Both the position numbers and the translations under genes were made by a program. From the IMG/VR virus record IMGVR_UViG_3300021963_000049, positions 1 to 64,000 of that record: DNA of 64,000 bases; one strand, given 5' to 3'. Within the stretch, counting starts at the first letter, position 1; each line of letters opens with the position of its first letter. This document shows positions 1 through 64,000 of this stretch, in pieces. A model generated the notes under the pieces. The model searched no databases. It worked only from the letters and a program-made list of their open reading frames with translations, and had not been told where the DNA came from. The stretch comes from a virus.

Positions 1-2
1 CT

Positions 3-2318
3 AAGCAATATATCATTGACTATACAGGTCAAATGGTTTCTAATATGAAACCTACTGGAGATGTAGTAAGAGAAGTAGCTAAAGAAGTAAACTCTCAAGC
101 TGATCCTAGTGAACCATCTAATACTAAAGAGTCACAGATTCTAAAGAATAATCCAAAAGAATCATCTACTGCAGAGCAACTAAGAGTTTATAATGCTGAT
201 GAAAATCCATTTGATGTTATGCCAGGTACAAAAACTCCTGAGCCATTAATTCAATATGATCCAGTTACTCAAAATGCAGAAGTACCTGCTACAGAACCAG
301 TTGCAGCTAATAATGTTTACACTGGAGCAATGGGCTCTACAAATGAAGAGTTCTGTTATCCAAGTGGAGTATGTTATTCAAAAACAGAGCCACAACAGTA
401 TGATTCTGCATTATTTACTGAAATACCAAGAGTACTTTCAAAATATGCAAGTGATAATAATTTAGATTTTACTCAATTAAATGAACATGGATACCCAGTA
501 AAATTAGATTTATCTAAAGTAACTAAAGATGATGTAGTAAATGCTATTAAAAATGATGAAAGATGGTTAGACTTATCTGGTGTACCAATAGGTGAAATTA
601 CTAATCTTGATGATTATGCTGATCAATGGTTAAAGTATCAGCAAGCAAATCAGAAAGCTTATGGTAATACAGATTATGATAGTTTTTGGAATGATGATGC
701 ATACTCTGATTGGTTAAATGTTACAGGAACTCCAGGAGAAGATGGGCCAAATGATATCTGGACTACAGTGCCATTATTAAAAATGCAACAAAAACAATAT
801 GGTGGTGCTAGCTCAGAAATGGGTGGCTTTGTAAGTCAGAAAGATCCATTATATAAATTTATATATGGAGGTGATGATGTTATGATGCCATATGATGACC
901 AAGATCTACCAATGGCACAAAATGGTGGTGGCCCAGGATGGCAATATTATACAGATTGGTTATATAATCAACCAACTAAAATATATAATACAGGAGAAGA
1001 TCCATATGAACTTACAACAAGACCTTTACCTGAAGAACTAATTACTTTAAATGAAACTGGAGATGAAACTACAGATGAAGCTGTAGATAGCCCATCAGTA
1101 AGAAAAGCCCAATTAAATTATATACCTAGATATAGAACAACTTCAGGTGGTTTATTTAGAACATTAGCTCCTTGGAATCCAATTGCAGGATATGCTGGAT
1201 CTTGGGCAAAACAAATGACATTACCATATATGGTAGGTAGCAATACTCCATATGGCGGTAGCATGTCTGGCTTAACTCCTGTTGCAAGACAAGTAACTAA
1301 AACTGGGTTGTTAAGTGGAAGACCAAAGAAATGGGTTGACTATTATCAAACCCCAGGAGTATCAGGATCTACATTATATAAAAGCTCAACAGGTGATCTA
1401 CAGATGTATAATCCAAATAGTGTAAACTTAATGGAGTCTATTAACCAACAAAGAGGGGAAAGACAAGCTCCAGCAGATAAGTATGGTGTAGAAGAAGAAA
1501 CTTGGAAAGAGTTGTCTGCTCCAACTAAAGGAGCTATTAAAAGAGGATATAGAAAAGGTGAAAGAAATGATAGAAGAGCAGCAAGGGCTGAAGAAAAAGA
1601 AAAGTTTTTTCCAGGTGGATCTATACTAAATAGTAGTACAGATGATAATCCATTTAATACTCAGCCTGCATGCCCTCCGGGATACTTTAAAGATCCAGCA
1701 TCTGGAGTATGTAAAAACTTTGCGGGAGAAGTAGTGGCATCTAATCAAGCTTCATCAGCTGTAAAGACTTTCCAAAGTGGAGCTCAAGATCAAATGAATA
1801 CTAATGCATTCCAAGCAACTGGTACTAATCCTCTTACTGGTCAAGACTATGCTTATACTAAAGATGGAAAACTAACAAAAAATAATTTAGATCCGGTATC
1901 TAATTTAGATCAACAATCAGAACTTGTTGGTGTAGAGTATAAGAATAAGAACATGTATAACATTGATCCAGAAGCTGGATTAAATGTATTCAATGCTGGT
2001 GTCAGAGGTGTACTTGGTAAAGTTGATGAGATAAGAAATAAAAAACTTGAAAATCAACTGATGAAAGATACAACAGCAGTTGAAAACATATACTCATCAC
2101 AGACACCACAATTTAGAGGAGACTGGGTTGATTATGGTTCACAAGTTGGTCAGTTTAGACAACCTGAGATGGGACAGAATAGAAGTAGTTTCTCATCATA
2201 TGGACAAAGAGGTGGCTTTATGCAGACCGGTGGATTTACACAAGATGATGAAGTGTACATGACAGATGAAGAAATAGCAGACTTCATAGCAAATGGAGGT
2301 GAAATAGAATACTTATAA
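3..2318 (+). CDS. virion structural/cargo-type protein, 5' end cut by window edge
   Basis: The frame is open to the left edge of the window. Codons from position 3 read KQYIIDYTGQ before the first visible ATG at 33, so the true start probably lies upstream and at least 761 residues are seen. The protein is rich in Asn, Gln, Gly and Tyr, lacks membrane segments, and has a small CPPGY...VCK cysteine pair near residue 545. Its C terminus is a Gly/Met-rich stretch followed by an acidic end (EVYMTDEEIADFIANGGEIE). From memory, similar tails end structural or cargo proteins of crAss-like phages. It ends 8 nt before the next gene in a closely spaced late operon. A virion role is inferred from position and composition; no enzymatic motif was seen. 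Confidence 0.6.
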   Translation, partial: KQYIIDYTGQMVSNMKPTGDVVREVAKEVNSQADPSEPSNTKESQILKNNPKESSTAEQLRVYNADENPFDVMPGTKTPEPLIQYDPVTQNAEVPATEPVAANNVYTGAMGSTNEEFCYPSGVCYSKTEPQQYDSALFTEIPRVLSKYASDNNLDFTQLNEHGYPVKLDLSKVTKDDVVNAIKNDERWLDLSGVPIGEITNLDDYADQWLKYQQANQKAYGNTDYDSFWNDDAYSDWLNVTGTPGEDGPNDIWTTVPLLKMQQKQYGGASSEMGGFVSQKDPLYKFIYGGDDVMMPYDDQDLPMAQNGGGPGWQYYTDWLYNQPTKIYNTGEDPYELTTRPLPEELITLNETGDETTDEAVDSPSVRKAQLNYIPRYRTTSGGLFRTLAPWNPIAGYAGSWAKQMTLPYMVGSNTPYGGSMSGLTPVARQVTKTGLLSGRPKKWVDYYQTPGVSGSTLYKSSTGDLQMYNPNSVNLMESINQQRGERQAPADKYGVEEETWKELSAPTKGAIKRGYRKGERNDRRAARAEEKEKFFPGGSILNSSTDDNPFNTQPACPPGYFKDPASGVCKNFAGEVVASNQASSAVKTFQSGAQDQMNTNAFQATGTNPLTGQDYAYTKDGKLTKNNLDPVSNLDQQSELVGVEYKNKNMYNIDPEAGLNVFNAGVRGVLGKVDEIRNKKLENQLMKDTTAVENIYSSQTPQFRGDWVDYGSQVGQFRQPEMGQNRSSFSSYGQRGGFMQTGGFTQDDEVYMTDEEIADFIANGGEIEYL

Positions 2319-2326
2319 CTTACAAT

Positions 2327-5300
2327 ATGTATAGAAAAGTTAGAATAAAAAAGGCACCACAAGCCAGAACAGGATACCAAGTTCAGGGAGCATTAGTAAA
2401 TGATGTTCCAGCAATGGGTGGTAAAGACTATAATGCCTATATTGGAAAACCACAATTAGCATTAAGTAAATATATTACTGGTGTTCCTAGAGAAGAAGCA
2501 AATCTTGAGGCAGAAGGAGGTGAAACTGTTTATGGAGATATCAATGGAGATGGAATGGCTGAGCATAAGATTATCAAAGGCCCAAGACACTCTAGTGGAG
2601 GTGTTCCATTAAACTTACCAGATGATACTTTTATCTTCAGTGATACAAGATCTATGAGAGTTAAGAAGCCAGAGATCTTAAAGATGTTTGGTAAAGGAGC
2701 TGGTTCATATACACCAGCACAATTAGCTAAGCAATATGATGTAGAGAAGTATAGAAAAATTCTACAGGATCCAAACTCTGATGTATTAGATAGAAAAACT
2801 GCAGAGTTAATGATCAAGAATTATACTATGAAACTTGGTGCATTAGCCTTAGCACAAGAAGCTTCAAAAGGATTCCCTCAAGGAGTTCCAGTTGTTGCTC
2901 AACCTTATATGGAAGCTCATGGGTTAACAATTGAAGATTTTATTCCAAGAGAAGTTTCTAATACTGTAGATAGTTTGAAAGCTAAAAGCACTTCTCAAGA
3001 AGCAAATGCAGTTGAGACAGAGCAATCAGAAGATCAAATGCAACAAGCTCAAGAGTTAAACCAGGGTCAACCAGTTGCAGCACCAATGTCAGAGCAAGAT
3101 GCAATGATGCAACAGCAAGGAATCCCACAAGAAGGTATGATGAGATTTGGTGGACCAATGGCAGCATATGGTATGACAATGGGAGGTTATGATATGCCTT
3201 TTGCTGAATATGGTATGCCAATGGGATCTGGTATGTCTCAAAACTATCAAGGAAGAGGCAGAAGAATGCAAGGAAGCGGACCTATGTTTGCAAGAGGCGG
3301 TTACTTGCCAAAAGCTCAAGATGGTTTTGAAGTTGATGTAACTGGTATGGATGAAGCTGCAAAAAATAGAGCTTTATTTGATGCTAGAAAAAACAATCCA
3401 GGTAAACAGATTATTGTAGTAGATAATGGTAAAAAGTCAACTTTAAAATATGAACGTGCAGCTCCTACAGAAACTGGTAAACTTGATATGAATCAATGGG
3501 GTAATACTTCACAAGCTAAAGCTGCTGCAGCACAATATGCTTTATTAGAAGAGCAATTAAATGATGAAGAAGTTCTTAATAAATTATATGAAGAAACTAC
3601 AAATGCATTAAAGGATAAGAAATCTTATTTAAGTAAAAAAGGTTACCAAGGTCAAACTTGGGAAGAAAGGGGTTATGCTTTACCAACTAAAGAAGAAATA
3701 AAACAACAATATCTTAATCACCAGAAAAGAAACTTGATGTTCCAAGCAAAAGCAATTGATCCTAGATTATTTAATGATAGTGGTCAAGGTCTTGCTCCTG
3801 CTGAAGATATTTTAAAACTTGGTGCTTTAAATCCACAAACAGGTGAGCCTATTAAAACACTTGATGAAGCTAAGCAAGTAAAAGAATACATGCGTAATAC
3901 TTATGGTGGTAAATTAAAAGATGGAAGTGGAAAAGTAGTTGACCTTTCAGTAAATGAAGTAGCAACTAAAATTGGAGTTCCTCTTGATCCATCTGGTAAA
4001 GATAGAGCTCTTCAACAAGCTACCTTCCATGGGTATTCTAAAATGATCCAAAACTTATCATCATATGATGCAGATACACAATTTGAGTTAAGAAACTTTG
4101 TACCTGAGAATGTTCAAGCTGGGGTAGGTGATGAAGTCAGTATGGGTGGATTGTTTAATAATAAAGGTGTTCAGGTATCTCCTATTGATGACTTTAGAGC
4201 TCCTGAACAATCATACTATGGTAATACTACATTAGGTCACTTAGGATTAGCAGGTGTAGATAAATATAGTTATGAGCCAATTGATGCTGCTAAGTGTCAA
4301 TGTGATGATCCTAATGCTGCAGGTTATCAAGCTAAAGATGCAGAGGGTAATTGTCCGTGTGATCAAAAAGCAGTAGTACAAGATAAGTGTCCTTGTGAAC
4401 AATCTGATGGTGCTACAATAGATACTGGAGTAAATCCAAATACTGGTGAATGTAATCCTTGTCAAGAAGATGTACCATATGATGTAGAGCAACCAGCTCC
4501 TTGGTGGTTACAAGATACCATTAAAACTGCCGGTGCTTTTGGAGATTTAATGAGCATTAAGAAATATATGCCGTGGGCTCCAGGAGTAGACTTAGAAACC
4601 CCAAGACCTACATTCTTAGATCCTACAAGAGAACTAGCTGCAAATGCTGAGCAATCAAATATTGCTACTCAAGCATTAGCACAATTTGCAGGACCACAAG
4701 CTTTATCTGCAAGAGCATCTTCTGTTCAAGGAACGGCTGCTAAAAATGCTGCGGATATCCTATCAAGATATAACAATGCTAATGTTAACCTGGCTAATCA
4801 ATTTGAAACAAATATAGTTAATACAAGAAACCAAGAGTCTATGTTAAGACAGGCTGCTGCTTCTAAACTATATGATCAAAATACAATAGCAAATCAACAG
4901 TATGATAACTCTAAAATGGCAATGAAGAACCAACTTAGAAATTACTATACTAATGCTATTACTAATAGATGGCAAACAGATGCTCTTAACCAAATGTATC
5001 CTAACTATGCGGTTGATCCATCAGTTGGTGGTCAAATGGCATTTACAGGTGCAGATCAAGCTTATAAACCAGAAGCTTCATCAGGTGCTGGTTATTTCTC
5101 TATAAGAGAGCAGTGTAAGCAAGAGCTTGGTGCCGGAGCTACCAATGATGAGTTAGAAGCATGTGCTAAAAATGCAGCAGCTTCAGCAGGAGCATTAGCA
5201 TCAGGCACAGGCTCAGAATATCAGGAAAGAGTAAATGCAGTAAGCAACATGTATCCACAAACACCTCAAGGACAAAAAGGAGGTTCAGTACCAGGGTTTG

Positions 5301-5335
5301 TGTATGCAGATATTATTACTCCATTCCTCTTATAA
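2327..5335 (+). CDS. crAss-like virion/cargo-type protein with Met-Gly-rich and Cys-rich segments
   Basis: A 1002-residue protein. The N-terminal region (about residues 1-190) carries the motif GGETVYGDINGDG followed by GPRHSSGGVPLNLPDDTFIF, which I recall from conserved structural proteins of Bacteroidota phages. About residues 230-330 are low complexity, first Gln/Glu-rich and then Met/Gly/Tyr-rich (repeats such as YGMTMGGYDM and YGMPMGSGM). About residues 655-715 hold eight cysteines as three CxC pairs and one CxxC pair. The last 250 residues are Ala/Asn/Gln-rich and probably helical. It follows the preceding gene by 8 nt and is followed by a 63-nt AT-rich gap with no clear terminator. It is probably packaged in the virion; the exact role is unknown. 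Confidence 0.65.
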   Translation: MYRKVRIKKAPQARTGYQVQGALVNDVPAMGGKDYNAYIGKPQLALSKYITGVPREEANLEAEGGETVYGDINGDGMAEHKIIKGPRHSSGGVPLNLPDDTFIFSDTRSMRVKKPEILKMFGKGAGSYTPAQLAKQYDVEKYRKILQDPNSDVLDRKTAELMIKNYTMKLGALALAQEASKGFPQGVPVVAQPYMEAHGLTIEDFIPREVSNTVDSLKAKSTSQEANAVETEQSEDQMQQAQELNQGQPVAAPMSEQDAMMQQQGIPQEGMMRFGGPMAAYGMTMGGYDMPFAEYGMPMGSGMSQNYQGRGRRMQGSGPMFARGGYLPKAQDGFEVDVTGMDEAAKNRALFDARKNNPGKQIIVVDNGKKSTLKYERAAPTETGKLDMNQWGNTSQAKAAAAQYALLEEQLNDEEVLNKLYEETTNALKDKKSYLSKKGYQGQTWEERGYALPTKEEIKQQYLNHQKRNLMFQAKAIDPRLFNDSGQGLAPAEDILKLGALNPQTGEPIKTLDEAKQVKEYMRNTYGGKLKDGSGKVVDLSVNEVATKIGVPLDPSGKDRALQQATFHGYSKMIQNLSSYDADTQFELRNFVPENVQAGVGDEVSMGGLFNNKGVQVSPIDDFRAPEQSYYGNTTLGHLGLAGVDKYSYEPIDAAKCQCDDPNAAGYQAKDAEGNCPCDQKAVVQDKCPCEQSDGATIDTGVNPNTGECNPCQEDVPYDVEQPAPWWLQDTIKTAGAFGDLMSIKKYMPWAPGVDLETPRPTFLDPTRELAANAEQSNIATQALAQFAGPQALSARASSVQGTAAKNAADILSRYNNANVNLANQFETNIVNTRNQESMLRQAAASKLYDQNTIANQQYDNSKMAMKNQLRNYYTNAITNRWQTDALNQMYPNYAVDPSVGGQMAFTGADQAYKPEASSGAGYFSIREQCKQELGAGATNDELEACAKNAAASAGALASGTGSEYQERVNAVSNMYPQTPQGQKGGSVPGFVYADIITPFLL

Positions 5336-5398
5336 ACTTTGTAGGTTTAATAAACTTATAAAATTTTAATAGTTTTACAATATAGATAAAAACATATT

Positions 5399-8300
5399 AT
5401 GGCAACGTATTTACAAGGTGTCACAGACTACATACCAGATTATCAGCCTTTCCAGCCCAATCTAAATTTCTATGCAAATTTATTACAGGCTAAGCAGACT
5501 CAGTATGATACAAATTATAAGGCAATAAATAATCTTTATGCTCAATTGTACAATGCTGATCTTACAAGAACTGATAATATAGAAAAGAAAGATAATCTTT
5601 TAAAGCAAATAGACTTTAACTTAAAAAGAGTTAGTGGTCTAGATTTATCTTTACAACAGAATGTAGATCAAGCAACTCAAGTATTTAGACCATTCTATGA
5701 AGATAAGTATCTTATGAAAGATATGGCCTGGACTAAGAATTTTAATAATACTTATAACAGTGCCATAGGATTAAAGAACTCATCTGATGAAAAGCAAAGT
5801 AAAAAATATTGGGATACTGGTGTAAAAGAACTTCAGTATAGAAGAGAAGAGTTTAAAGATGCTGCAGCTGATGAGGCATTGAATATGGCAAGTCCAACAT
5901 ATACTCCATATGATAATGCATTAGAGAAATATTTAAAGGTTGCAAAGGATCTAGGTATCAGTGCAGATATAACAAAACCAGATTCCTCTGGTTTATATTT
6001 TGTAAGACAAAAGAATGGAAATCTTATAATGCCGGCTTTACAAAAGTTATTTATAAGCACATATGCAACAGATCCAAATCTTCAGAAAATATATCAAACC
6101 CAAGCTTATGTAGATAGAAAAGATTATATCTATCAAAATGCTGATCAAAAGTTTAATGGAGATAAGCTTGCTGCAGAAAAAGAATACTTACAAGAAAAGT
6201 ATAACTGGTTAAGTAACTATTCAGCAGAGCAATACAAGAAAAATTCTGAAGATACTAAAGCTACTGAAAGCAAAATAACTGCGGTTCAAAATGCAGTTAC
6301 TGAAGGTAATGTAAACTTTAAGCAAAAGTCTTACTTTGAAATGTTAGATCAAGCATTTAAAGTTAATTCTGTTGCAGAAGAAGAAAGTAAAAAGTTAAAT
6401 GATAAAATTAATGGTACTTCATCTTCTACAGTTTCAACTACTAATGGTCTAACACCAACACTAGATCTTAATAATATTGAACTTGCTAGATTAAAAGTAG
6501 ATGCTGGAGTAGCTAATTTTGCAGCTCAACAAGATGTTTTAGCAGCTGCTGATATCTATGCATATAAAGATTTTGTTCAGGATATTAAAGTAAACCCGGT
6601 AGGTCTTGAAGGTTTACAGCACTCAAATGCTGTAGCAAGACTTAATCTGACTCATTCACAAAAAATGCAGCAGATTGCTTATCAAGGTAAACTTAAAGAA
6701 CAAGCTGATGCAAAGAAAGCACTTGTAGAAAGTGGTCAGTATTATTATGATAGTTATGTAGATCCAGCAACTAATGAAGTTGTAATAGGCCCACTTAAAT
6801 TAAATGAGCAGTGGAATGTTCAAAATCAAACTCCAGGTAGCTCAGGACAAGCTGGTCCAGAAATTAAAATTGATCAGAATAATAGAGAAGCAACAAGACA
6901 GGCTGAAAATAAACTTACTGGAAATTATATAGATGACTGGTTTATTAAAATGGCTAATCTTGTTGAGCAAGGGGGAATTACAGAAGAGGAGGCTTGGGCT
7001 ATAATGAATGGTGGTACTAAAAATGGTACAAGAACTTTATCAGGAAATCAGATAGTACAAAGAACACCTATATCAAAACAAACAGCTGAAGAACTTCAAG
7101 CAAGTAAAAACTATAAAGGTAAGGTTGAAAAAGTAGGGGATAAATATTTTTCAGTGAGAGTTGATGAAAAATCAGCAAACTCAATTGAACAATTTAAAAA
7201 ATACTATCAAACTTGGTTATCAGATAAAGATGCTGGTAGAAAAGTTATTCAAGCTAAACTTACAGGTGTAATGGATGGTATGGATGAGTGGATGAAAAAG
7301 AATTCAGGACATCCAATGGCAGAAGGGTATTATAACCAAAACTATTCTAGTGCTAAACAGTGGGTTGGATTATGTGACTCTTATGAACAAGTAGAAATAG
7401 AAAATAAAAATAAAATTAAAGAAGCCTTAACTAAGGCAGCTGGAGGCACTAAAAAAGCAAAAGAAGTAGCTGATTTATATGTAAGAGTTTTAGAAAGTAT
7501 AGATTATGATCCTACTGGCGGCAATGCAAAATATTTATCTAATGTTGAAGAATTTGAAGAATTATTAAAACAAAACTATACAGCCAAAGAATTATTTGGA
7601 GATAAAGACTATGGTACTGAATATCTTGAAAAACATGCTACAACAACAGCAAAATCAAGATATCAACCAAAAGAAAAAATTAAAATATATCCAAGGGTTC
7701 CTGGATCAGCTGCATATACAGGATTACTTGAATCATTAAATAATAGTTATATGAATGTAACTACTAGTCTTGATCCAAATATAGGTTTAAAATCTGTAGT
7801 TCCTGTAACAGCAAGTGCAGGAGGTAAAGCAGCTTTATTTGCAGATAAATCATTCTATAATGTTAATCCAGCTATACCAGCTTCAATGGGATCTAAGGCT
7901 TTTATTGGAACCTATAATGACATAATGAGGATCAACTGGAATCAAGATTTTTCCCAGTATAAAGTATCTGATGAAGGTAGCACCATTACTGCAAGAAATT
8001 TAGATTCTGATTTTGCTAAATCACTCTTAAGTGAATTATATAATGGATTTAAGCCAGGTAGCAAAGTTGCTCCATTTAGAGTTGAGCAATCTCAAGTTGC
8101 TATGGAAAATAGAAAGCTTGGGGCAATGACTATTTATCCTACTATGGAGTTCTTAAAAGATAAAGTTAAATCTGTATATGATCCAGAAACTGAATCTTAC
8201 ACTTCAGAAACAGATGTTGTAAATAAAGCAATTCAAAAGATATATGAAAATGGTTTAACATTTACTGCACCAAGAACAGAATGGACTAATGATTTATTCT

Positions 8301-36804: not shown

Positions 36805-38703
36805 TTAAAATAAACTTAATTGGTTTAAATTTGGTTCAAGAGAAGCTATCTCTTTCTTTATCCTTTGTAGATAATAGTCATAGTTGATACTATAATTAGA
36901 AAAGTCTTGCTCTTCATGATCAATATAGACTGTTTGGAGCCAAGGTCCGGCTTCTACTTGTATTTCTCTAGAGTCAGTAAGATTTGTTTTAATAATCTTA
37001 CTACCTTTTTTAGATATATAATATCTGATTGTATGCTGCAGAGGAGTCTTTAAATATTCTCCATCAACTACTTTGTGTTCATAAAACTTCCAGTCACCTT
37101 TTATTTTTACACCACCACAAAAATCAAATATATTTGTGTTAGCTTTAATAAAGTCTTCTGGTCTTATTCCTTTAACAAAATATGCCTGGAGTGCTTTTGG
37201 TATAATTAAGAAGCTCTTGTTTTTATGAAGAGCTAAGTTATCATACTCAAATCTACCTTTACATTTAGACTTACCATCCTCTGTTACAGCAATATAATTA
37301 TTTACATCACCAAGAACAATCTTAGAATATGTACCGTGTTCTAACTCAAGACTGGTAATTTCTTCCCATCTTTTGCAGATCTCCATATACTTATCCATAT
37401 ATTCTCTTGGAATCATAGTCTCTAAACCATCAGTATTCTGCATAAGTGGAACTGCTCCGGGAATTTCTTCACAGATCATTTCATACAGCATGCTTAGACT
37501 TAGCTGACCATTGATAGTAATCCTCATAGTAAACTCAGGATCATATAGAAAACTATTCTCATCATTACTTAAACCATAAGTAGAATTTAGAATAATCTTA
37601 TATACATAATTCTTAGGATTGCTCTTAGGTATTTTCTTTCTTTCTTCAAAGAACCATTCATACAAAGCACAGAATTCTTCTTTTGGCAAGTGTGCCGGAG
37701 CCCATTTATTTCTAATTGCAAGATTAGGATAATAACTGACAACATCTGAAGTCATGATAACCATATCTTGGTTAGACTTATAAACTTTAGTAGTTCTGGC
37801 ACCATGAATACCACCAAGACCATAATCTGTCTTTACACCTTTATACTTTATAGAATATTTAAAACCACCTTTAGTTTCTTCTGGAAATATAGTTATATCC
37901 TGAAATTTCTTTAACAAAGTCTGAAAGGTTGCAGTTTTAAATTCTATATAAGGTAAGATTATATCTTTAACCACAATCTTACTCCTATGAGTTCTCATGT
38001 TTCTAAGATCATATTTCTTGATCCCAGTTTGCTTACTCAAAAAGTATAAGAATAGTTCTTTAGATATTCTTGGCTCAGAAGCAGAAAATAAATCAATATT
38101 ATACTCTTCAGTTAAAGATTTTCTTAGTGAAATTTGCTCTTTACTTAGATGCATAATTGCCTTAGTAGACTTAACATCATTAATACAATAGGTTATAATC
38201 TCAGGAATTTGTTCTGCAGTAACTTCAGTAGTATGATGAATTGGCATATCTATAATATTCTTCCAATCCATACTAAACTGAATCCACTTTAAACTAGATC
38301 TCTTAGCATTATTGTCCCAGTGATTAAGCTTATAAACATCTACTTGTCTAATACTTAAATCTCTTGGACTAAATTCTAAGAACTGCCCTTCATTACTTCT
38401 TCTGATTGTATCCTGTGCTTTGCCATATAAGAACTTGGCAATGGTCTTACCATCTTGTTCTATTAACTGTTCTGCATTCTTTAGGATGTGCTCGGTGATT
38501 TGGCTATCAAAACCAATCCCATTAAAACTAACATGCCATTCATCCCGGTCTTTATTCCCAAGCAAGAAATATACTAAGCTTGTGATATCATTCCTAGACT
38601 CATGGCATACAAAGATCTCTTGATCTTCTGATCTGATATCTTCAAACACTGCAATAAAACAGTTGCTTAAAGTCTCATAATCCATTACCCAATGTGTTCT
38701 CAT
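36805..38703 (-). CDS. family B DNA polymerase with 3'-5' exonuclease
   Basis: A 632-residue protein. Exonuclease motifs: Exo I D8-Y-E10, Exo II around N61...F65-D66, Exo III Y172...D176. Polymerase motifs: motif A D320-VVSYYP, motif B K369-IIL-N373-STY-G377, motif C QNTDG with D425. The first Asp of the usual DTD is Asn (N423), as in some phage PolB enzymes. It is shorter than cellular PolB (about 800 residues or more) but complete in motifs. It is the main replicative polymerase candidate of this phage; crAss-like phages carry either a PolA or a PolB type. It overlaps the upstream zinc protein by 4 nt (ATGA) and is followed 1 nt later by the DUF932-like gene. Confidence 0.93.
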   Translation of the reverse strand: MRTHWVMDYETLSNCFIAVFEDIRSEDQEIFVCHESRNDITSLVYFLLGNKDRDEWHVSFNGIGFDSQITEHILKNAEQLIEQDGKTIAKFLYGKAQDTIRRSNEGQFLEFSPRDLSIRQVDVYKLNHWDNNAKRSSLKWIQFSMDWKNIIDMPIHHTTEVTAEQIPEIITYCINDVKSTKAIMHLSKEQISLRKSLTEEYNIDLFSASEPRISKELFLYFLSKQTGIKKYDLRNMRTHRSKIVVKDIILPYIEFKTATFQTLLKKFQDITIFPEETKGGFKYSIKYKGVKTDYGLGGIHGARTTKVYKSNQDMVIMTSDVVSYYPNLAIRNKWAPAHLPKEEFCALYEWFFEERKKIPKSNPKNYVYKIILNSTYGLSNDENSFLYDPEFTMRITINGQLSLSMLYEMICEEIPGAVPLMQNTDGLETMIPREYMDKYMEICKRWEEITSLELEHGTYSKIVLGDVNNYIAVTEDGKSKCKGRFEYDNLALHKNKSFLIIPKALQAYFVKGIRPEDFIKANTNIFDFCGGVKIKGDWKFYEHKVVDGEYLKTPLQHTIRYYISKKGSKIIKTNLTDSREIQVEAGPWLQTVYIDHEEQDFSNYSINYDYYLQRIKKEIASLEPNLNQLSLF

Positions 38704-39966: not shown

Positions 39967-40986
39967 TTACAATTTTGTATTACCTACTGCTAAGTCATAT
40001 GGTAGATCATATCTCTTGTTCTTATAGTGCCATTCAGCAATTTTAAGAACTTGTTTAAAATCTATTCTCCATTGTGACATAGATTCTTCTGACACTTGGA
40101 AAGGATAAACTAAATTGTATTTGTCAATTACAATATAAGTTACTTGCATTTTCCAAAGGTGTTTGTCTGGCATGTCTTTTAAGAATTTATCTGCAGCTAG
40201 TACAATATAGATAACAGCTTGTATCCAATATTTGTAATACTCAACAGCTTCAGGAAAATCTTGAATAGACTTGCCAGTTGTCTTTAAATCATTAATAAAA
40301 ATTGTTTTAGACTGCTTATCAATAACTATGTTATCAAGAACTCCATGAAGACCAAAAGGCAATCTGTCATGATCCATCTGAATATGCAACTCATTATATA
40401 CTTCAATGTGATCATCTTCCTCTGTCTTATCTAGCTGTAATAAAGCTCTTACATCCTTATTACTTTTTAGTATCTCTACCTGTGCTTTGCAGCCATCCAA
40501 AGTAGGTTGATCTACTACTATTTTGTCTAAACTTTTCTTGAGGAATTCAAAATACTCTTTATTCTCTTCAGTGAGAACTTTTTCTATTCTTTGAGCATCT
40601 GTTTTAAGGGCTTGATAAAGATTTGCTACAAGTAGCTGTGTGAGTATATCTTGAGAGTAGTCTTCCAAAAGTAAAGAATTATTTCCAACTGAGCAATGTA
40701 TCCGGAAAATATTATCAATAATTTTTCTTTGACTGTCTGTAGGAAACTTCCCTGGCATGCTCATAAACTTATCATCATATGTATCAGGTTCAAATAATAG
40801 ACAGTGCAGGACACTCCCTCCTATGAGGTGAGCATCCTTACTATCTTCTCTTTGGTTGAGCACATAATGGTTATAAAAAGCTGCGGGTGAAAAAAGTAGT
40901 TTGTTTAAACCACTGTAGCTAAAATAAAATTTCTTCTGATAGAATTTTTCTAATTCATCAGAACCACTCAAAGTCACTGGTGTCAT
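39967..40986 (-). CDS. PD-(D/E)XK nuclease (Cas4/RecB/exonuclease VIII type)
   Basis: A 339-residue protein. Motifs in order: GGSVLHCLLFEP (H61, the fold's N-terminal His), GVLDNIVID (D218), INDLKTTGK (D233-x-K235) and Q256...Y260. This is the H...D...DxK...QxxxY layout of Cas4/RecB/exonuclease VIII-like enzymes. It probably degrades linear DNA ends in recombination or host DNA breakdown, together with the Sak4-like ATPase encoded upstream. It overlaps the preceding gene by 29 nt. No iron-sulfur cysteine set was seen. Confidence 0.85.
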   Translation of the reverse strand: MTPVTLSGSDELEKFYQKKFYFSYSGLNKLLFSPAAFYNHYVLNQREDSKDAHLIGGSVLHCLLFEPDTYDDKFMSMPGKFPTDSQRKIIDNIFRIHCSVGNNSLLLEDYSQDILTQLLVANLYQALKTDAQRIEKVLTEENKEYFEFLKKSLDKIVVDQPTLDGCKAQVEILKSNKDVRALLQLDKTEEDDHIEVYNELHIQMDHDRLPFGLHGVLDNIVIDKQSKTIFINDLKTTGKSIQDFPEAVEYYKYWIQAVIYIVLAADKFLKDMPDKHLWKMQVTYIVIDKYNLVYPFQVSEESMSQWRIDFKQVLKIAEWHYKNKRYDLPYDLAVGNTKL

Positions 40987-45743: not shown

Positions 45744-45913
45744 TATATACTATCTAAATAATCTAACATATTACCTCTAGCATTATTAAAGCCTTCTGCT
45801 CTAGCATCATCACATAACTCTTCTACTCTTGTTATTATTTCTTCTTTTAACTCATCTGTTAATGTTTGAAGGTCCAAACCTTCAATCCATTCATTAAATT
45901 CATCTATATTCAT
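45743..45913 (-). CDS. small acidic helical protein
   Basis: A 56-residue ORF found by reading the gap: it starts MNIDEFNEWIEGLDLQ and ends LDYLDSI. Both ends share one base with their neighbours: the upstream stop at 45913-45915 and the downstream ATG at 45743 form TAATG overlaps, strong evidence that it is translated. It is acidic and helical, with no motif recognised. Confidence 0.7.
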   Translation of the reverse strand: MNIDEFNEWIEGLDLQTLTDELKEEIITRVEELCDDARAEGFNNARGNMLDYLDSI

Positions 45914-46314: not shown

Positions 46315-46315
46315 A

Positions 46316-47718: not shown

Positions 47719-47736
47719 AACACCTAAATTAAAATA

Positions 47737-47768
47737 TTAAGGGGGAAACTTTTCTGATTCCCCCTTAA
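47737..47768 (-). terminator. terminator after the ssDNA-binding candidate gene
   Basis: Perfect 11-bp stem TTAAGGGGGAA/TTCCCCCTTAA with a 10-nt loop, followed leftward by TATTTTAATTT. It ends the large 60299-47775 unit and lies 6 nt after the last stop. Confidence 0.82.
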
Positions 47769-47774
47769 CTATCA

Positions 47775-48458: not shown

Positions 48459-48476
48459 TTTTTTACTTTTTAATTA

Positions 48477-49196
48477 TTATATAAACACTTTGTCCCAACT
48501 GGTTGTTAGAACATTATCTACCATTTCAGATACTACTATCTCTTCATTTCTCAAATGCTCTGGTCTTGCACCACAGGTAACTTCTTCATTAGTTTTAAAA
48601 CTAAGAATAGTTTTGTTTCCCTTGCGGTACATGTAGCCAATTGCATCTGCATTTGCACAGATCAAAGATCTTATTTTACCTGTCAAATCTATATTAGCAG
48701 ACATTACAAGTTCACCTTTATCATCAACTTGTTTGTCTTTAATATGCCCTGATAAAATAATTGTGGGTGCTAATGTATCAATAAAATCCAATACCTGAAA
48801 AAATGCTTGCCTAATATATAAATATCCGGCACCATTAGGTAAGGTTACTACAGTATCCCCATCAAAGTTTTTACCCATTGGAGTTTGACGGTAAAGTTTT
48901 ATAGCTAAAGGCATTATCATTTCTTCTAATGCAGTTACAGTATCTACTGTAATAAACTTATAAGGTTTACCAGCTTCTTTAATAGCTTTACCAACATCTA
49001 GTAATTCTTGAAGACTTCCAATTTTAACCTTCAATGCATCCACATATTCAGTACCATTTTCTAAATCAAGAATCAGATTGTTGTCTAGACCAGCAAATGC
49101 TGTTGTCTTACCAGTTTTTGGCTTAGAATAAATCACAATTCTTTTAGGATTTACTCTTTCTGCCTTTACTTTACTTGTTGGAAGAACTATACTCAT
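48477..49196 (-). CDS. Sak4-like RecA-fold ATPase (recombination)
   Basis: A 239-residue protein. Walker A IYSKPKTGKTT (K30-T31), Walker B FITVDT (D85), and a conserved GHIKDKQ near residue 155 fit the Sak4/AAA_24 RecA-like family of phage single-strand annealing or recombination ATPases. It probably works with the adjacent ssDNA-binding candidate. It overlaps the upstream gene by 4 nt. Confidence 0.82.
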   Translation of the reverse strand: MSIVLPTSKVKAERVNPKRIVIYSKPKTGKTTAFAGLDNNLILDLENGTEYVDALKVKIGSLQELLDVGKAIKEAGKPYKFITVDTVTALEEMIMPLAIKLYRQTPMGKNFDGDTVVTLPNGAGYLYIRQAFFQVLDFIDTLAPTIILSGHIKDKQVDDKGELVMSANIDLTGKIRSLICANADAIGYMYRKGNKTILSFKTNEEVTCGARPEHLRNEEIVVSEMVDNVLTTSWDKVFI

Positions 49197-49837
49197 ATTT
49201 CACTTTTTGTTTGTTTGATTAACTCATTCAACCAAGGTCTTGTACTTACTGGCTTAATTAGCATAATAGCTGCAAGATCCCGGATTGTAATCTCAGACAA
49301 AGGAGCATCTTCAGCATCTAAACTAGGAGCTTCTACTTCTGTTTTAGGAGCAAACTGTTCTTCAAAGTCTGGAAAAACTGAAAGTTTATTCTGTAATTTA
49401 GGCAACTCAGCTTCTTTTTCAGCTTTTCTTTTCTCATAAAGATTATAAGTTATCTCACTTCCATCAGTCATAATAGCTGTAAGCTCACTTACTGGAACTG
49501 TAAAGGAAGAATAGGGATCACCTTTTGCACTTATACCTTCTTTCTTTTCATACTCTTCCTGAAAATAAGGATTGTACTTGTACTTAAATAACTGCCTATC
49601 CTCTAACATAGGTACTACATCTTTAACACCATTAACTTCTATGTTATCATAGAACTCAACATAAAGATCTTCACCCTTTGCAAGCTCAGACTCAAAGAAT
49701 AATACTTGTCTTCCAAACTTACCTTTTTGATAAAATGCAGTTTTAATTAGAAAACAAGGATCTGCAAGTCCCAACTTTCTAAAAGTTTCCATGTGTTGTA
49801 CAAAGAAATCTTTTTCTTTTTCTTTTCTCATTGTCAT
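49193..49837 (-). CDS. hypothetical replication-region protein
   Basis: A 214-residue protein. A folded N-terminal half (KDFFVQHMETFRKLGLADPC...) is followed by a charged linker and a helical C terminus (IRDLAAIMLIKPVSTRPWLN). It overlaps the ATPase by 4 nt and follows the helicase by 3 nt, so it is embedded between two replisome genes. No domain recognised. Confidence 0.6.
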   Translation of the reverse strand: MTMRKEKEKDFFVQHMETFRKLGLADPCFLIKTAFYQKGKFGRQVLFFESELAKGEDLYVEFYDNIEVNGVKDVVPMLEDRQLFKYKYNPYFQEEYEKKEGISAKGDPYSSFTVPVSELTAIMTDGSEITYNLYEKRKAEKEAELPKLQNKLSVFPDFEEQFAPKTEVEAPSLDAEDAPLSEITIRDLAAIMLIKPVSTRPWLNELIKQTKSEI

Positions 49838-49840
49838 AAT

Positions 49841-50836
49841 TTAAATTTTAATTTTTGTACCTGCTTGTGCTGGTGGGTCAATTTCTATAATTCTCATTGT
49901 ATCTCTGTCCAACTTGAAAAAACTAATTCTGGTGGTGCCATTTCTTGACTTCAGAAAGTGAAATACTAAAATGTCCTCATCATGAATAATAAATTTTTCA
50001 GGGCCATAGTGTCTAATCTTCCTTATAGAAGGTTTGTTAATACCCATAACCACATCAGCATGCTGTAATAAAGCATCAGAACCATATATATCAGAATCTA
50101 ATACATAATTACCATATTCACCATCTCTTGATCTTTCTGGAGCATCAATATTTCTATTTAATTGGCTTAGGACTAAAAAGGCCACGGGATAGTGCTTCTT
50201 CATGTGAGTCAATGCTTCACCTAATGCACCTAACATATCAAATTTATCCTTTTGCCCTTTAGCCAACCTAAATAATGCAGAGTGATCTATAGTTACAAGC
50301 ATGTTAGTATACTTTCCATCTTTCTTGTGTTTCTCCATTTGATAATGGATAGTTGCACACATTTCATCTACTGTACATGCATCATAAACCACATCCACAA
50401 AATCTGTTGCTTCAGTTTTTTGATAATAATCTACACATTTCTGGAAGATTGTCTTATCAACAAGCTGGTTCTTACTCATTAATGTATTGTAATCAGCACC
50501 TGTAATCAGACTAAATTTTCTTATTCCACTGGTTTCATCAACCATTTCCATTTGGAACTTAAGTATTCTATATTCTTGATCAGTATTTAGTTCTATAATA
50601 TCACTAATTAACTGCTCCATGAATAAAGTCTTACCAGTTCCTGGTCTAGCACCTACTACAGTGATAGTTCTCCATTCTAATCCATCACAAAAGGCATCAT
50701 TAAATTTTGGCCAGACACTTTTGAGTACTTTTAACTCACCGTTTCTTTTTGCTTTCATCTTTAAGAGTCCCTTCTTTAGAGCATCTCTTTCACTGACCGG
50801 TAGTAAAGGTCTAGCATTATTAAATAATTCTGCCAT
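49841..50836 (-). CDS. dnaB: DnaB-like replicative helicase (SF4)
   Basis: A 331-residue protein. Walker A VGARPGTGKT (61-70) and a downstream LVTIDHSALF Walker B, then VLSQLNRNID, correspond to the RecA-type motor of SF4 replicative helicases. It lacks the N-terminal domain of bacterial DnaB, which is typical for short phage versions. It unwinds DNA 5'-3' ahead of the polymerase. It is flanked by a small membrane protein gene and a putative helicase partner. Confidence 0.88.
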   Translation of the reverse strand: MAELFNNARPLLPVSERDALKKGLLKMKAKRNGELKVLKSVWPKFNDAFCDGLEWRTITVVGARPGTGKTLFMEQLISDIIELNTDQEYRILKFQMEMVDETSGIRKFSLITGADYNTLMSKNQLVDKTIFQKCVDYYQKTEATDFVDVVYDACTVDEMCATIHYQMEKHKKDGKYTNMLVTIDHSALFRLAKGQKDKFDMLGALGEALTHMKKHYPVAFLVLSQLNRNIDAPERSRDGEYGNYVLDSDIYGSDALLQHADVVMGINKPSIRKIRHYGPEKFIIHDEDILVFHFLKSRNGTTRISFFKLDRDTMRIIEIDPPAQAGTKIKI

Positions 50837-50837: not shown

Positions 50838-51020
50838 TTATTCTGGATTTACATTATTAATTCTTTCCTTACCTATATTATATATCTCATGAAATATTGA
50901 AATAACAAGTTCAATTACTATAAATTGCCATAGTGCCATATTTACAATAAAAAGATCAGTTATGTAATAGCCCAAGAGAGTACCAATAATAGCAAGAAAG
51001 AGTAGTCTTACTCTTGTCAT
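50838..51020 (-). CDS. small two-helix membrane protein
   Basis: A 60-residue protein with two predicted membrane helices (LLFLAIIGTLLGYYITDLFI and LWQFIVIELVISIF) and a polar tail. It overlaps the upstream gene by 4 nt and ends 1 nt before the helicase gene, so the spacing supports real coding. Possible roles include membrane anchoring of the replisome or host modification; not determinable. Confidence 0.55.
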   Translation of the reverse strand: MTRVRLLFLAIIGTLLGYYITDLFIVNMALWQFIVIELVISIFHEIYNIGKERINNVNPE

Positions 51021-51604
51021 ACAATTCTCTCTTTAAAATATACCTGATGGTCATCAGGATTTGATGTAATAAGTTCACAATAATTTGCTAAATCAGATTC
51101 AAAACTTTTATCAGTATTCTGTTTTCTTAAAAAGTACTGAGATGTCCTCATGTAGTCAAAGTTTCTAACTTCATACTCACCAACATACCTCTCAGTAGCT
51201 TTTATTATTATATCCCAATCATAATCATAATTTTCAAAGAACCATCTAAAGGCAACTTCTAGATTCTTAGGAGTAGTTCTTGCATATTTTCCAGAGGACA
51301 GTTTCCTATTAGGAAATATATTCACATACTCCTGTATTTTTTGCAGAAAATCTGCACCCATTAAATCTTTAGAAGTTTTCTTTTTGCTTTTCTTGAAATA
51401 ACCATTTATTTCTTCAATAAAGATAAGACTTTTGCTTGTTAATTGCAAATCTTCTGTCAACCAACCTTCAGTTTGCAGCCTTTTGCATTCAAGTTCTTTG
51501 TTCACAAATTTATATGGAACTGTTTTCTCCCGGATGCAATGCAACACATAATAAGTATTTGGTGTTAGTCCTTCTTGAACCAGCCTTGTAAATATATCTG
51601 TCAT
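51017..51604 (-). CDS. putative winged-helix replication partner
   Basis: A 195-residue protein. The N-terminal 60 residues follow a winged-helix pattern (LTPNTYYVLHCI, CKRLQTEGWLTE, LQLTSKS). The C-terminal part contains AFRWFFENYDYDWDIIIKAT and YMRTSQYFLRK. It lies between uracil-DNA glycosylase and the helicase, where a replisome organiser or helicase loader is often encoded. That role is inferred from context. Confidence 0.55.
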   Translation of the reverse strand: MTDIFTRLVQEGLTPNTYYVLHCIREKTVPYKFVNKELECKRLQTEGWLTEDLQLTSKSLIFIEEINGYFKKSKKKTSKDLMGADFLQKIQEYVNIFPNRKLSSGKYARTTPKNLEVAFRWFFENYDYDWDIIIKATERYVGEYEVRNFDYMRTSQYFLRKQNTDKSFESDLANYCELITSNPDDHQVYFKERIV

Positions 51605-51605: not shown

Positions 51606-52301
51606 CTACCAAGTTATGTTTTTATACTTTTGAATATCTATAAATAAATTATTAGAGTTCCATTTGGATCCGCTATATGCTGCACTTGCAGGATGCTTTA
51701 CAAAAAACTTAGTGTTATTTGTTTCATCTATTATCTCAGACCACTCTTCTGCCTTTTTACCCATAAATACATATACCAGTCCTGGGTTATAATTATTCAG
51801 CCAGTCTAGTAAATAAGCAGTAAAAGGCTTCCATATATCATAATGGCTACCAATTTTATTTACTTCAGTTGTAAGAGCTGTATTAAGCATCAGTATACCC
51901 TGATTAGACCATCTTTTAAGATCTACATCTTTTGTAACTTCATGCCCATTATACAGTGTCCTATTTATTTCTTCAAAAATATATCTAAGACTTGGCTGTA
52001 ATCTATTAGTATTACTACAGCTAAATGCTATTCCATCAGCTACTCCAATTTGAGGATAAGGATCTTGACCAACCATAACTAATTGTAGTTTATTATATGG
52101 ACATTCTTCAAAGGCCCTAAATACTTGTTTTAATGGTGGTGTAAACCTTTTGTCAGCTTCAGTTAAATTCCAAAGTTTAGTAAGTATCTCATCAAAGTCA
52201 TTACTAAATATAAAAGATTTAAAAACTCTGCTCCAACCACTTGGCTCTAGCTTTTCAAACATTTTTTGTTTAATCAGTTCAAGATCTAAATTTTGTTTCA
52301 T
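51606..52301 (-). CDS. ung: uracil-DNA glycosylase, family 1
   Basis: A 231-residue protein. GQDPYP at residues 78-83 gives the water-activating Asp (D80), and HPAS at 203-206 is the Leu-loop motif (usually HPSP). LNTALT near 139-144 gives the uracil-binding Asn. It removes uracil from DNA. The length equals bacterial family-1 enzymes. UDG is a recurrent crAss-like phage gene. Its start is only 22 nt from the start of the divergent + strand gene. Confidence 0.95.
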   Translation of the reverse strand: MKQNLDLELIKQKMFEKLEPSGWSRVFKSFIFSNDFDEILTKLWNLTEADKRFTPPLKQVFRAFEECPYNKLQLVMVGQDPYPQIGVADGIAFSCSNTNRLQPSLRYIFEEINRTLYNGHEVTKDVDLKRWSNQGILMLNTALTTEVNKIGSHYDIWKPFTAYLLDWLNNYNPGLVYVFMGKKAEEWSEIIDETNNTKFFVKHPASAAYSGSKWNSNNLFIDIQKYKNITW

Positions 52302-56026: not shown

Positions 56027-57133
56027 CTACATATTATCCAGATTTATATTATAGTCTTTCCAGATAATTTTACTTTGATCAAAGTCTTCAAGAGCTTCTT
56101 TTACCCATTTTTCATCTACTGTACCTACATAACATAGTATATGCACAATAGCTTTGTCATCTGGATTTAACCGGAGCAACCGACCAATTCTCTGAGAACT
56201 TTTTCTCTCATTACCATAAGCATGCATGATGATACCTTGTTTAAGATTAGGAATATTAACACCCTCATTTAACTGCAATACAGCAGAGAGTTTATTAATT
56301 TCTCCATTCTTAAACATCAACAGATTCTCTTCAGAATTAGTATTACCACTATGGTAGCTATGGTTACACAATTTATCAGCCTGAGCCTGTGTATTTGCAA
56401 ACAGAATACACTTTCCTTCTATGCTATTGAACAATATGCGGGCATATTTCTCTTTACTAGGATATTCCATAAGAGCTTTCATTCTCATTATCCTAATAAT
56501 ATGCACACCAGATGTTGCTACATCTAGCCTTCTTGTCCAATAACTATAGTTTAAATACTCAGAAGTCTTAAACTTTTTCTTTTGCATTTCTACTTCATAG
56601 TCTTTAACTTCACTAAGCTGTAGCATATGCACAATAATCTGATAGTCATTTAGTATTCCATTTTCTATAGCATCATCAGCTTTAAATGTATATACTATTG
56701 GACAGAATTCATTTACCAGCTTACCTTTCTCAGAGTGCTTATATTTTGGCGGAGTACCAGTCAATCCTAGTATCACACCTTTGTAATTATATAAAAAACC
56801 TCTGTGGGAGTCAAGCAAGCTGTGCACCTCATCCAGATATATAATATCATAATCATTAGGATTATGCTTATTAAGACTTAGATAAGTTGTAAAAGTAATT
56901 CTACCAAGTAAGTGATGCTTATCAAATTTCTCCGCATCATCTTTCCAAGATTGATAAATTGCTTTCTTTGGAGCAACAACCAGGCATCTCATTAGAGCTG
57001 TGCTATTTTTCTCCAGGTGAGTAAGACCAACTAAAGTTTTACCCACACCGGTTCCAAGAACTACACTGCATCTCTTGTGTCCTTCAGTTGCTTCAATAGC
57101 TTTTAACTGTATTTCATCTTTAGTCATAATCAA
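56027..57133 (-). CDS. SF2 DEAD-like helicase
   Basis: A 368-residue protein. Motif I GTGVGKT (27-33), motif II DEVH (101-104), motif III-like TGTPP (125-129) and motif VI QRIGRLLR (314-321) define an SF2 helicase/translocase similar to phage UvsW/RAD25-type enzymes. Likely roles are branch migration, replication restart or recombination. It overlaps nothing; the HNH gene ends on the adjacent base upstream. Confidence 0.9.
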   Translation of the reverse strand: MIMTKDEIQLKAIEATEGHKRCSVVLGTGVGKTLVGLTHLEKNSTALMRCLVVAPKKAIYQSWKDDAEKFDKHHLLGRITFTTYLSLNKHNPNDYDIIYLDEVHSLLDSHRGFLYNYKGVILGLTGTPPKYKHSEKGKLVNEFCPIVYTFKADDAIENGILNDYQIIVHMLQLSEVKDYEVEMQKKKFKTSEYLNYSYWTRRLDVATSGVHIIRIMRMKALMEYPSKEKYARILFNSIEGKCILFANTQAQADKLCNHSYHSGNTNSEENLLMFKNGEINKLSAVLQLNEGVNIPNLKQGIIMHAYGNERKSSQRIGRLLRLNPDDKAIVHILCYVGTVDEKWVKEALEDFDQSKIIWKDYNINLDNM

Positions 57134-57561: not shown

Positions 57562-58431
57562 TCAGAATATGTATCTTATTGTATTCCAAGGTATTATCTT
57601 ATCATGCAATTCTACAAACTGCTTAATATAATCTGCTTTTCTATTATGCTCATACCTAATATTTTTACCTCCATACTGTGATACTTTTCCTTCTTGTATT
57701 TTAGGTACCCATAATAGTTCTTCTCCAGGAAGTTTATGTGCTAGATTATACTTGTGCTTGTCTTCATTATGAGTTAAAAATATTACTTCAGCTTTGACAG
57801 AATTTTGTGGCCAATGATGTATATAACAGTGCTTTCCTATTATATCAAATAAGAACTCATATTCTATTAACCAATTATCATGAACTATTACAGGACTAAA
57901 ATTTAAATGGACATCATAACCTGCATCAAGAAAATCTGAAACAGAACGGAGTCTTTCATCAATAGAAGATGTATTAGGTTCAAGTATCTTTCTCCACCTT
58001 TCAGGCATTATACTAAATCTAATTCTAATTTTACCTTCAGGATTAAACATTAAAAGTTCTGGATTCACATATTTAGTAGCAAATGAACCCATAGCAAGTG
58101 GATGATCCCGGAAGAAAGCAAATATCTTCTCCCATTCATGATACTTAGCATGTAGTGCAAAATCTTCATTACAAGAGATATCATAAGTAATAAACTCCCC
58201 GGTCTGATTAGGCTTCTCTACATCAGCAAACCATACATGTGAATTAATTTCTGTCAGGATGTCCATAGTATTAGATGCTATAGATAGTCCTTCCGGCTTA
58301 TGCCTCTTCATGTAGCAGTAACTACAATTATATAAACACCCATGTCCAAAACTTGGAGAGATAAAATCTGTAGATCTACCAGATGGCCTAATTATCATAG
58401 ACTTCCTAGTAACTTTCTCTACCAGACTCAT
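57562..58431 (-). CDS. radical SAM protein, spore photoproduct lyase-like
   Basis: A 289-residue protein. C32-x3-C36-x2-C39 (GCLYNCSYC) binds the 4Fe-4S cluster, and the flanks FGHGCLYNCSYCYMKRH and NPEGKIRIRFSIMPERWRK match the SPL-like branch of radical SAM enzymes. Family members repair thymine spore photoproduct, but phage versions are of unproven substrate and may repair or modify phage DNA. It overlaps the small zinc gene by 4 nt. Confidence 0.85.
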   Translation of the reverse strand: MSLVEKVTRKSMIIRPSGRSTDFISPSFGHGCLYNCSYCYMKRHKPEGLSIASNTMDILTEINSHVWFADVEKPNQTGEFITYDISCNEDFALHAKYHEWEKIFAFFRDHPLAMGSFATKYVNPELLMFNPEGKIRIRFSIMPERWRKILEPNTSSIDERLRSVSDFLDAGYDVHLNFSPVIVHDNWLIEYEFLFDIIGKHCYIHHWPQNSVKAEVIFLTHNEDKHKYNLAHKLPGEELLWVPKIQEGKVSQYGGKNIRYEHNRKADYIKQFVELHDKIIPWNTIRYIF

Positions 58432-61308: not shown

Positions 61309-61310
61309 AA

Positions 61311-62754: not shown

Positions 62755-62784
62755 TATAAATACATAAAGATTAGTAAATGTATG

Positions 62785-62813: not shown

Positions 62814-62844
62814 GTTTAAATTTTGACATTATATAGCTAATAAA

Positions 62845-62868: not shown

Positions 62869-62910
62869 AGTATTACTGTTCAGGAAAAGCATATCTACAG
62901 ATATACTATT

Positions 62911-63330: not shown

Positions 63331-63332
63331 GC

Positions 63333-63861: not shown

Positions 63862-63919
63862 AATCATAATTTTAAGATGTAATTTACTAAATATTTGAGT
63901 TATACACAAAAGTGCATAG

Positions 63920-63991
63920 TAGTTCCACCTGGACTCGAACCAGGAATACAAGCTTAGAAGGCTAGTGTTATATCCCTTTAACTATAGAACT
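63920..63991 (-). tRNA. tRNA-Arg (anticodon UCU)
   Basis: A 72-nt cloverleaf read leftward: acceptor AGTTCTA pairing with TGGAACT (one G.U), D stem GTTA/TAAC with a GG-containing loop, anticodon stem CTAGC/GCTTG (one T-T mismatch) with loop CTTCTAA, anticodon TCT at 63958-63956, 4-nt variable loop, T arm CCTGG-TTCGAGT-CCAGG and discriminator A. CCA is not encoded. It reads AGA/AGG, by far the main Arg codons here, so it probably boosts translation of phage genes. Confidence 0.92.
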
Positions 63992-64000
63992 AAAAACAGG

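What the first reader, a model, noticed from the sequence alone, without database searches (positions are those of the whole stretch)
1..64000. Extreme CpG depletion, with surviving CpGs concentrated in CCGG
By hand count, 1-5400 contains about 17 CpGs where roughly 150 would be expected at one-third GC, and 45001-50040 contains about 8. GpC is common in the same stretches. Of those 25 CpGs about 9 lie in CCGG and most others in GCGG; TCG and ACG contexts are almost absent. CCGG itself therefore occurs at roughly its chance frequency while CpG as a whole is cut about ten-fold. The bias also acts across codon borders: CCG and GCC codons appear mostly before a G. It thus looks like a DNA- or RNA-level pressure rather than simple codon choice. 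Possible causes are methylation and deamination outside a protected CCGG context, a restriction or host-defence pressure, or a host with the same bias.
Basis: partly seen in the sequence, partly recalled or inferred. Interest (0 to 1): 0.72.

Follow-up and report, generated by a model that had tools for sequence, protein, structure and literature searches.

The report
Crass-like phages that shun CpG
This 117-kb bacterial virus and hundreds of its relatives have almost no "CG" steps in their DNA, not because CGs decay but because new ones almost never become established, and a cultured human-gut relative (crAss001) shows the same ban even more strongly while its type of host does not.

Summary
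Confirmed. The window has 154 CpGs against about 1,700 expected (o/e 0.091); the whole 116,688-bp record has 0.108. It is a Crassvirales-type phage. The depletion is even over codon phases, strands and spacers, and 240 IMG/VR loci of relatives share it (0.07-0.46).

CCGG is not a special site. Each flank acts independently and multiplicatively (5' flank T<A<G<C; TCGA o/e 0.005, CCGG 1.34), and a trinucleotide Markov model predicts the CCGG count (123 versus 129).

Methylation-deamination is not supported. No C5-methyltransferase was found, and surviving CpGs are lost only about 3 times faster than other Cs, by transversions as well as transitions. Instead, CpG-creating substitutions are missing: TTG-to-TCG is 15-26 fold rarer than TTA-to-TCA, even between contigs 99-99.95% identical. 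That is the mark of selection, or selection-like fixation bias, on double-stranded DNA.

The trait follows the phage lineage, not the host. Cultured crAss001 has 0.028 (0.01 in its structural half) and DAC15 0.022, although a B. thetaiotaomicron plasmid has 1.17. FpV21 has 0.082, while an unrelated phage of the same host species has 0.97. The agent that reads CpG is unidentified; a CpG-directed nuclease, the phage's own or the host's, is the best guess.

The parts
1..64000 (.). CpG-depleted phage DNA: 154 CpG (o/e 0.091), 66 of them in CCGG; the rest of the 116,688-bp record is alike (o/e 0.10-0.15)
63919..63991 (-). tRNA-Arg(TCT), the only tRNA gene found in the record; its TTCGA loop (TCGA at 63935) is one of only two TCGA sites in 116,688 bp
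36805..38703 (-). family B DNA polymerase (phrog_1252), used to find the relatives; crAss001, equally depleted, is annotated with DNA polymerase I instead
51606..52301 (-). uracil-DNA glycosylase superfamily protein (GQDPYP motif, UNG-like); found in all six depleted genomes and phi14:2, absent from ten other Crassvirales
51017..51604 (-). 195-aa protein of unknown function next to the glycosylase; same distribution
56027..57133 (-). SF2 helicase (ResIII/Helicase_C); same distribution
39967..40986 (-). PD-(D/E)XK nuclease, one of the nucleases to be tested for CpG preference

Best explanation
The genome carries a lineage-borne, double-stranded-DNA-level ban on CpG. Any mutation that creates a CpG, by whatever base change, is almost always eliminated, and the penalty is graded by the two neighbours as if a symmetric reader summed contributions from both flanks (worst TCGA, none for CCGG). 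Shown: depth, evenness, flank multiplicativity, strand symmetry, suppressed gain with only mildly raised loss, presence across the clade and in cultured crAss001, DAC15 and FpV21, and absence from a host plasmid and from another phage of the same host species. Because the trait follows phage lineages, I think it somewhat more likely to be phage-encoded (a host-takeover nuclease whose sites the phage must itself lack) than a host defence.
For: Even over codon phases and in spacers; codon-junction shuffle z about -32. Flanks multiply: TCGA 0.005, ACGA 0.009, ACGT 0.029, GCGC 0.135, CCGG 1.34; independent decay of the two strands would make the rates add, so TCGG could exceed TCGA at most about two-fold, yet it exceeds it 14-fold. 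Flank preference is reverse-complement symmetric on the sense strand. Pairs of relatives: TTG-to-TCG 0.00005 versus TTA-to-TCA 0.00132 per site at 99-99.95% identity, 0.00115 versus 0.0167 at 94-98% (p about 4e-62), transversion routes likewise suppressed, while CpG loss is about 3x and the same for all 5' flanks. In crAss001 isolates, gain is suppressed about 30x (4/8,832 versus 193/14,279) while 37 of 41 CpGs are conserved with respect to C-to-T change. Lineage rather than host. CpGs survive where RNA function needs them: 19 of crAss001's 87 lie in tRNA genes, and one of two TCGAs here is the tRNA T-loop.
Against: No CpG-specific nuclease was identified; the genes shared by depleted genomes (glycosylase, 195-aa protein, SF2 helicase) also occur in phi14:2 (CpG 0.46) and look like a replication module, and one depleted relative has lost the glycosylase motif. 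Graded o/e values imply selection coefficients near the drift limit for many contexts, unusual for a cutting enzyme. Gains and losses were not polarised with outgroups. A mutation process that simply never makes CpG would leave the same record. Crassvirales backbone branches are unresolved.
Confidence: 0.55

Rival explanations
1. CpG methylation and deamination: a CpG methyltransferase of host or phage methylates CpG outside CCGG and the product decays to TpG/CpA.
For: The classic cause of CpG loss; CpG C-to-T loss is raised about 3x.
Against: No PF00145 protein in 24 plus 22 records, including crAss001 and FpV21 (the same tool also missed a known glycosylase in this record, so short or divergent enzymes could escape). 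TpG/CpA o/e of 1.149 is no more than an even spread of the deficit would give (about 1.18). Transversions are raised as much as transitions. At four-fold sites C|G-to-T is 0.162 versus 0.128 for C|A. TCG, the rarest context, is not lost faster than CCG (0.083 versus 0.084). Gain, which decay leaves untouched, is what is suppressed.
Confidence: 0.04
2. A host defence aimed at CpG (restriction-like enzyme or sensor in Bacteroidota) that these virulent phages escape by having no sites.
For: crAss001 and FpV21 also ban GATC, GGCC and CTAG (1/306, 0/62, 2/325; 1/217, 1/5, 14/195), a textbook restriction-avoidance picture. All hosts appear to be Bacteroidota (crAss001, DAC15, FpV21 by record; this phage by total lack of Shine-Dalgarno motifs).
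Against: Phage 6H of the same species as FpV21's host is not depleted (0.966), nor is crAss002 on another Bacteroides species (0.72). This phage avoids no other four-base palindrome (GATC 418/430, GGCC 70/60). A two-base restriction target would also need protection of a host genome full of CpG.
Confidence: 0.25
3. Mutation or repair bias of the phage replication machinery that hardly ever generates CpG.
For: Gain is suppressed already at the shortest distances; depleted genomes share a replication module.
Against: Needs T-to-C, A-to-C and G-to-C all suppressed, on both strands, with a graded two-flank context. The polymerase differs between equally depleted lineages (family B here, DNA polymerase I in crAss001). 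tRNA genes keep CpG.
Confidence: 0.12
4. RNA-level selection (an RNase or sensor reading CpG in transcripts) or codon/tRNA choice.
For: Structured RNA genes retain CpG.
Against: Flank preference is mirror-symmetric on the sense strand, all codon phases are equal and spacers are depleted.
Confidence: 0.07
5. Copying of the host's own dinucleotide signature.
For: General rule for phages; the true host of this clade is unknown.
Against: Cultured relatives differ about 50-fold from host DNA (DAC15 0.022 versus B. thetaiotaomicron plasmid p5482 1.17).
Confidence: 0.05

Closest known systems
CpG suppression in vertebrates and their viruses
   Same: Depth of depletion (o/e 0.1-0.2), all codon phases.
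   Different: No methyltransferase found, no CpG-to-TpG hypermutability, bacterial host, gain suppressed rather than loss raised, retention at CCGG/CCG.
Restriction-site (palindrome) avoidance by virulent phages
   Same: Selection-like elimination of a short double-strand DNA target; in crAss001 and FpV21 it coexists with a ban on GATC, GGCC and CTAG.
   Different: The target is a two-base step with graded flanks, non-palindromic contexts are avoided equally, and in this phage no other palindrome is avoided.
Genomic-signature sharing between phage and host
   Same: A genome-wide dinucleotide bias.
   Different: Opposite to the host proxy in the cultured cases; varies between phages of one host species.
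Bacteroides phage crAss001 / DAC15 (Crassvirales, Steigviridae) and Flavobacterium phage FpV21
   Same: Extreme CpG depletion (0.028, 0.022, 0.082), shared core genes; crAss001 also keeps CCGG best.
   Different: TerL/portal only distantly related (TerL about 25% identity to Crassvirales; 22% to FpV21); flank gradient weak or absent in DAC15 and FpV21.

Membership tests
Crassvirales | crAss-type TerL, portal, major capsid and ring proteins | tested here: met
   TerL phrog_6681 and tblastn to 125 records, mostly Crassvirales; MCP phrog_11589; CrAss_Ring_1 and CrAss_Ring_2 in Pfam; portal and TerL trees. Family placement within the order not resolved.
Methylation-driven CpG depletion | CpG (C5) DNA methyltransferase present | tested here: not met
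   No PF00145 match in 46 record searches; the host genome could not be examined
Methylation-driven CpG depletion | Hypermutable CpG-to-TpG/CpA transitions | tested here: not met
Methylation-driven CpG depletion | 5-methylcytosine at surviving CpG | not testable with these tools
   needs nanopore or enzymatic methyl sequencing
Restriction-site avoidance | Absence of one or more 4-6 bp recognition sites beyond what shorter words predict | tested here: not met
   In this record CCGG 1.04, GATC 0.97, GGCC 1.17 of the Markov expectation; met for GATC/GGCC/CTAG in crAss001 and FpV21
Host-signature mimicry | Phage CpG o/e matches host CpG o/e | tested here: not met
   Tested only through relatives: DAC15 0.022 versus B. 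thetaiotaomicron plasmid 1.17; FpV21 0.082 versus 6H 0.966. Own host unknown.
RNA-level CpG selection (ZAP-like) | Context effects specific to the sense strand | tested here: not met
   TCGG 0.076 / CCGA 0.154, TCGT 0.066 / ACGA 0.042, ACGG 0.36 / CCGT 0.56 on the sense strand
Phage-encoded host-DNA-degrading nuclease with self-avoidance | A nuclease with CpG specificity in all depleted genomes | tested here: inconclusive
   Shared genes found, none known to cut CpG; PF02945 nuclease occurs in this record only among 25

The most novel reading that the evidence does not exclude
Several Crassvirales lineages carry, or constantly meet, an unknown enzyme that recognises the two-base step CpG in double-stranded DNA with additive flank energies; they use it to destroy the CpG-rich host chromosome, or are policed by it, and have purged CpG from their own genomes to near zero (16 of about 1,340 expected in 25-70 kb of crAss001).
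Probability: 0.3. Interest if true: 0.85.

Novelty: new variant of a known kind. Interest (0 to 1): 0.68.

Why it matters
A near-absolute ban on a dinucleotide in double-stranded DNA phages whose hosts are CpG-rich points to an unrecognised DNA-reading activity in phage-host conflict. crAss001 is cultured and belongs to an abundant group of human-gut viruses, so the question is directly testable. If a two-base CpG cutter exists it would be a new enzyme class and a tool. In any case the result warns that composition-based host prediction and binning can fail for these phages.

Tried and rejected
(1) CCGG as a protected or methylated site: rejected, trinucleotides explain it in all subgroups. 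(2) C5-methyltransferase search in 46 records: none. (3) Host from a MAG: two related phage contigs sit in a Campylobacteraceae bin, but the phage has no Shine-Dalgarno motif (0/92 AGGAG, control 2.5%) and an A-rich start region typical of Bacteroidota, so the contigs are probably misbinned. (4) Polymerase type as cause: depleted lineages differ. (5) Glycosylase as cause: UNG-like motif, degenerate in G426, also in phi14:2. (6) PF02945 HNH nuclease shared with crAss001 by phmmer: sporadic. (7) Recent gene imports as CpG islands: no gene stands out after 122 tests. (8) Flavobacterium or Bacteroides host plasmids through protein searches: few useful hits; p5482 was used instead. (9) Literature: ten searches found no report of CpG depletion in crAss-like phages (among them); only open-licence papers are held.

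Full report
Observation. The window holds 154 CpGs, o/e 0.091, while GpC is at 1.20. The remaining 52,688 bases of the record give 0.10-0.15, the whole 0.108. No gene is a significant outlier after correction for 122 tests. Codon-junction CpG is 117 against 744.6 +/- 19.3 after shuffling synonymous codons within genes. By codon phase the o/e is 0.092, 0.130 and 0.140; in spacers it is 0.148.

What the genome is. A Crassvirales-type virulent phage: TerL phrog_6681, MCP phrog_11589, CrAss_Ring_1/2, family B DNA polymerase, DnaB-type helicase, primase, glycosylase. TerL is only about 25% identical to named members. None of 92 genes tested has AGGAG upstream, the region 3-5 and 11-13 bases upstream is A-rich, and this is the Bacteroidota style of start site (the attribution to Bacteroidota rests on general knowledge). 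The own host is unknown.

Flanks, not CCGG. Relative to NC x GN, retention is TCGA 0.005, TCGT/ACGA 0.009, ACGT 0.029, GCGA 0.019, GCGC 0.135, CCGA/TCGG 0.069, ACGG/CCGT 0.148, GCGG/CCGC 0.370, CCGG 1.344. The values factor into one weight per flank (T<A<G<C), so CCGG is predicted by trinucleotides (123 versus 129). The pooled clade gives the same picture (TCGA 0.006, CCGG 1.12), and so do CCGG-rich and CCGG-poor subgroups. If each strand's C decayed independently, rates would add and TCGG could exceed TCGA by at most about two-fold; it exceeds it 14-fold. On the sense strand, contexts and their reverse complements agree within about two-fold, as expected of double-stranded DNA and not of RNA.

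Kinetics. In pairs of relatives surviving CpGs are fairly stable: loss by C-to-T is 0.083-0.089 per site at 94-98% identity for every 5' flank, against 0.02-0.05 at other Cs, and transversion loss is raised 2-6 fold. At four-fold sites C|G-to-T is 0.162 and C|A-to-T 0.128. What is strongly changed is gain. TTG-to-TCG is 0.00115 against 0.0167 for TTA-to-TCA (17/14,723 versus 420/25,216, p about 4e-62), and 0.00005 versus 0.00132 in pairs at 99-99.95%. CTG-to-CCG is suppressed only about 1.5-fold against CTA-to-CCA, and transversion routes follow the same flanks. Decay of methylated CpG predicts the reverse: normal gain, fast loss, transitions only. Standard weak-selection theory, with log-odds of retention as scaled selection, predicts roughly what is seen (for 10-fold depletion, loss x2.6 and gain x0.26). 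Counts are unpolarised pair differences; the pairs within a bin were chosen to overlap little, but a few share a contig.

Breadth. Eighty loci found by polymerase, 80 by terminase and 80 of a sister group have CpG 0.07-0.46 and median TCG 0.03-0.04 of expectation. Among named phages (whole or near-whole records): crAss001 0.028, DAC15 0.022, FpV21 0.082; phi14:2 0.46; ten Suoliviridae and Intestiviridae 0.52-0.87. Between 25 and 70 kb crAss001 has 16 CpGs where about 1,340 are expected, and in its isolates CpG gain is suppressed about 30-fold. Of its 87 CpGs, 19 lie in tRNA genes (1.8% of the genome), and CCGG is the commonest context elsewhere (18 of 68). Here one of the only two TCGA sites is the T-loop of the tRNA gene.

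Host or phage. Plasmid p5482 of B. thetaiotaomicron VPI-5482 has CpG 1.17; DAC15, isolated on B. thetaiotaomicron, has 0.022. Phages 6H and FpV21 both infect F. psychrophilum and have 0.966 and 0.082. So the trait follows phage lineage. Depleted genomes plus phi14:2 share a glycosylase, a 195-aa protein and an SF2 helicase absent from the ten others. This may only reflect ancestry: trees leave the backbone open, and crAss001/DAC15 are sisters of phi14:2. crAss001 and FpV21 also ban GATC, GGCC and CTAG, classic restriction targets; the present phage does not.

Conclusion. Selection or selection-like bias on double-stranded DNA against CpG is well supported for the clade and for crAss001. The identity of the CpG reader is inference: a CpG-directed nuclease, phage-borne somewhat more likely than host-borne.

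Noticed in passing
L271/L282/L283 (crAss001, MH675552), whole record: crAss001 has 1 GATC (306 expected), 0 GGCC (62) and 2 CTAG (325) by Markov expectation; crAss002 has 2 GATC (272), FpV21 1 GATC (217). Very strong restriction-type palindrome bans in cultured Bacteroidota phages.
   Followed up: partly
L283:21453-21596 (crAss001 record 96,453-96,596, minus strand): Rfam finds a tRNA spread over 144 bases (46.6 bits), so apparently interrupted, in an unannotated gap upstream of the TROVE-domain gene; the gap is a local CpG cluster. Surviving CpGs may flag structured RNA genes in such genomes.
   Followed up: partly
L001:1337-1937 (record 65,337-65,937, just outside the window): 601-bp stretch without an ORF of 60 aa or more, holding 8 CpGs, the densest CpG spacer of the record; no Rfam match. 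Possible structured RNA.
   Followed up: partly
window 57562-58431 (-): Protein matching Pfam SPL (spore photoproduct lyase) in a phage whose host is probably a non-sporulating Bacteroidota.
   Followed up: no
L084 and G024 contigs C73, C136: A Campylobacteraceae MAG contains two contigs of this phage group, probably binned wrongly.
   Followed up: partly
L341 (G426 record about 97,109-97,813): Relative with a glycosylase whose catalytic motif is changed (GQDPYP to NQGPSP), suggesting a non-catalytic role such as a replication factor.
   Followed up: partly
L102 versus L267: Two phages of Flavobacterium psychrophilum with CpG o/e 0.08 and 0.97: a warning for composition-based host prediction.
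   Followed up: yes
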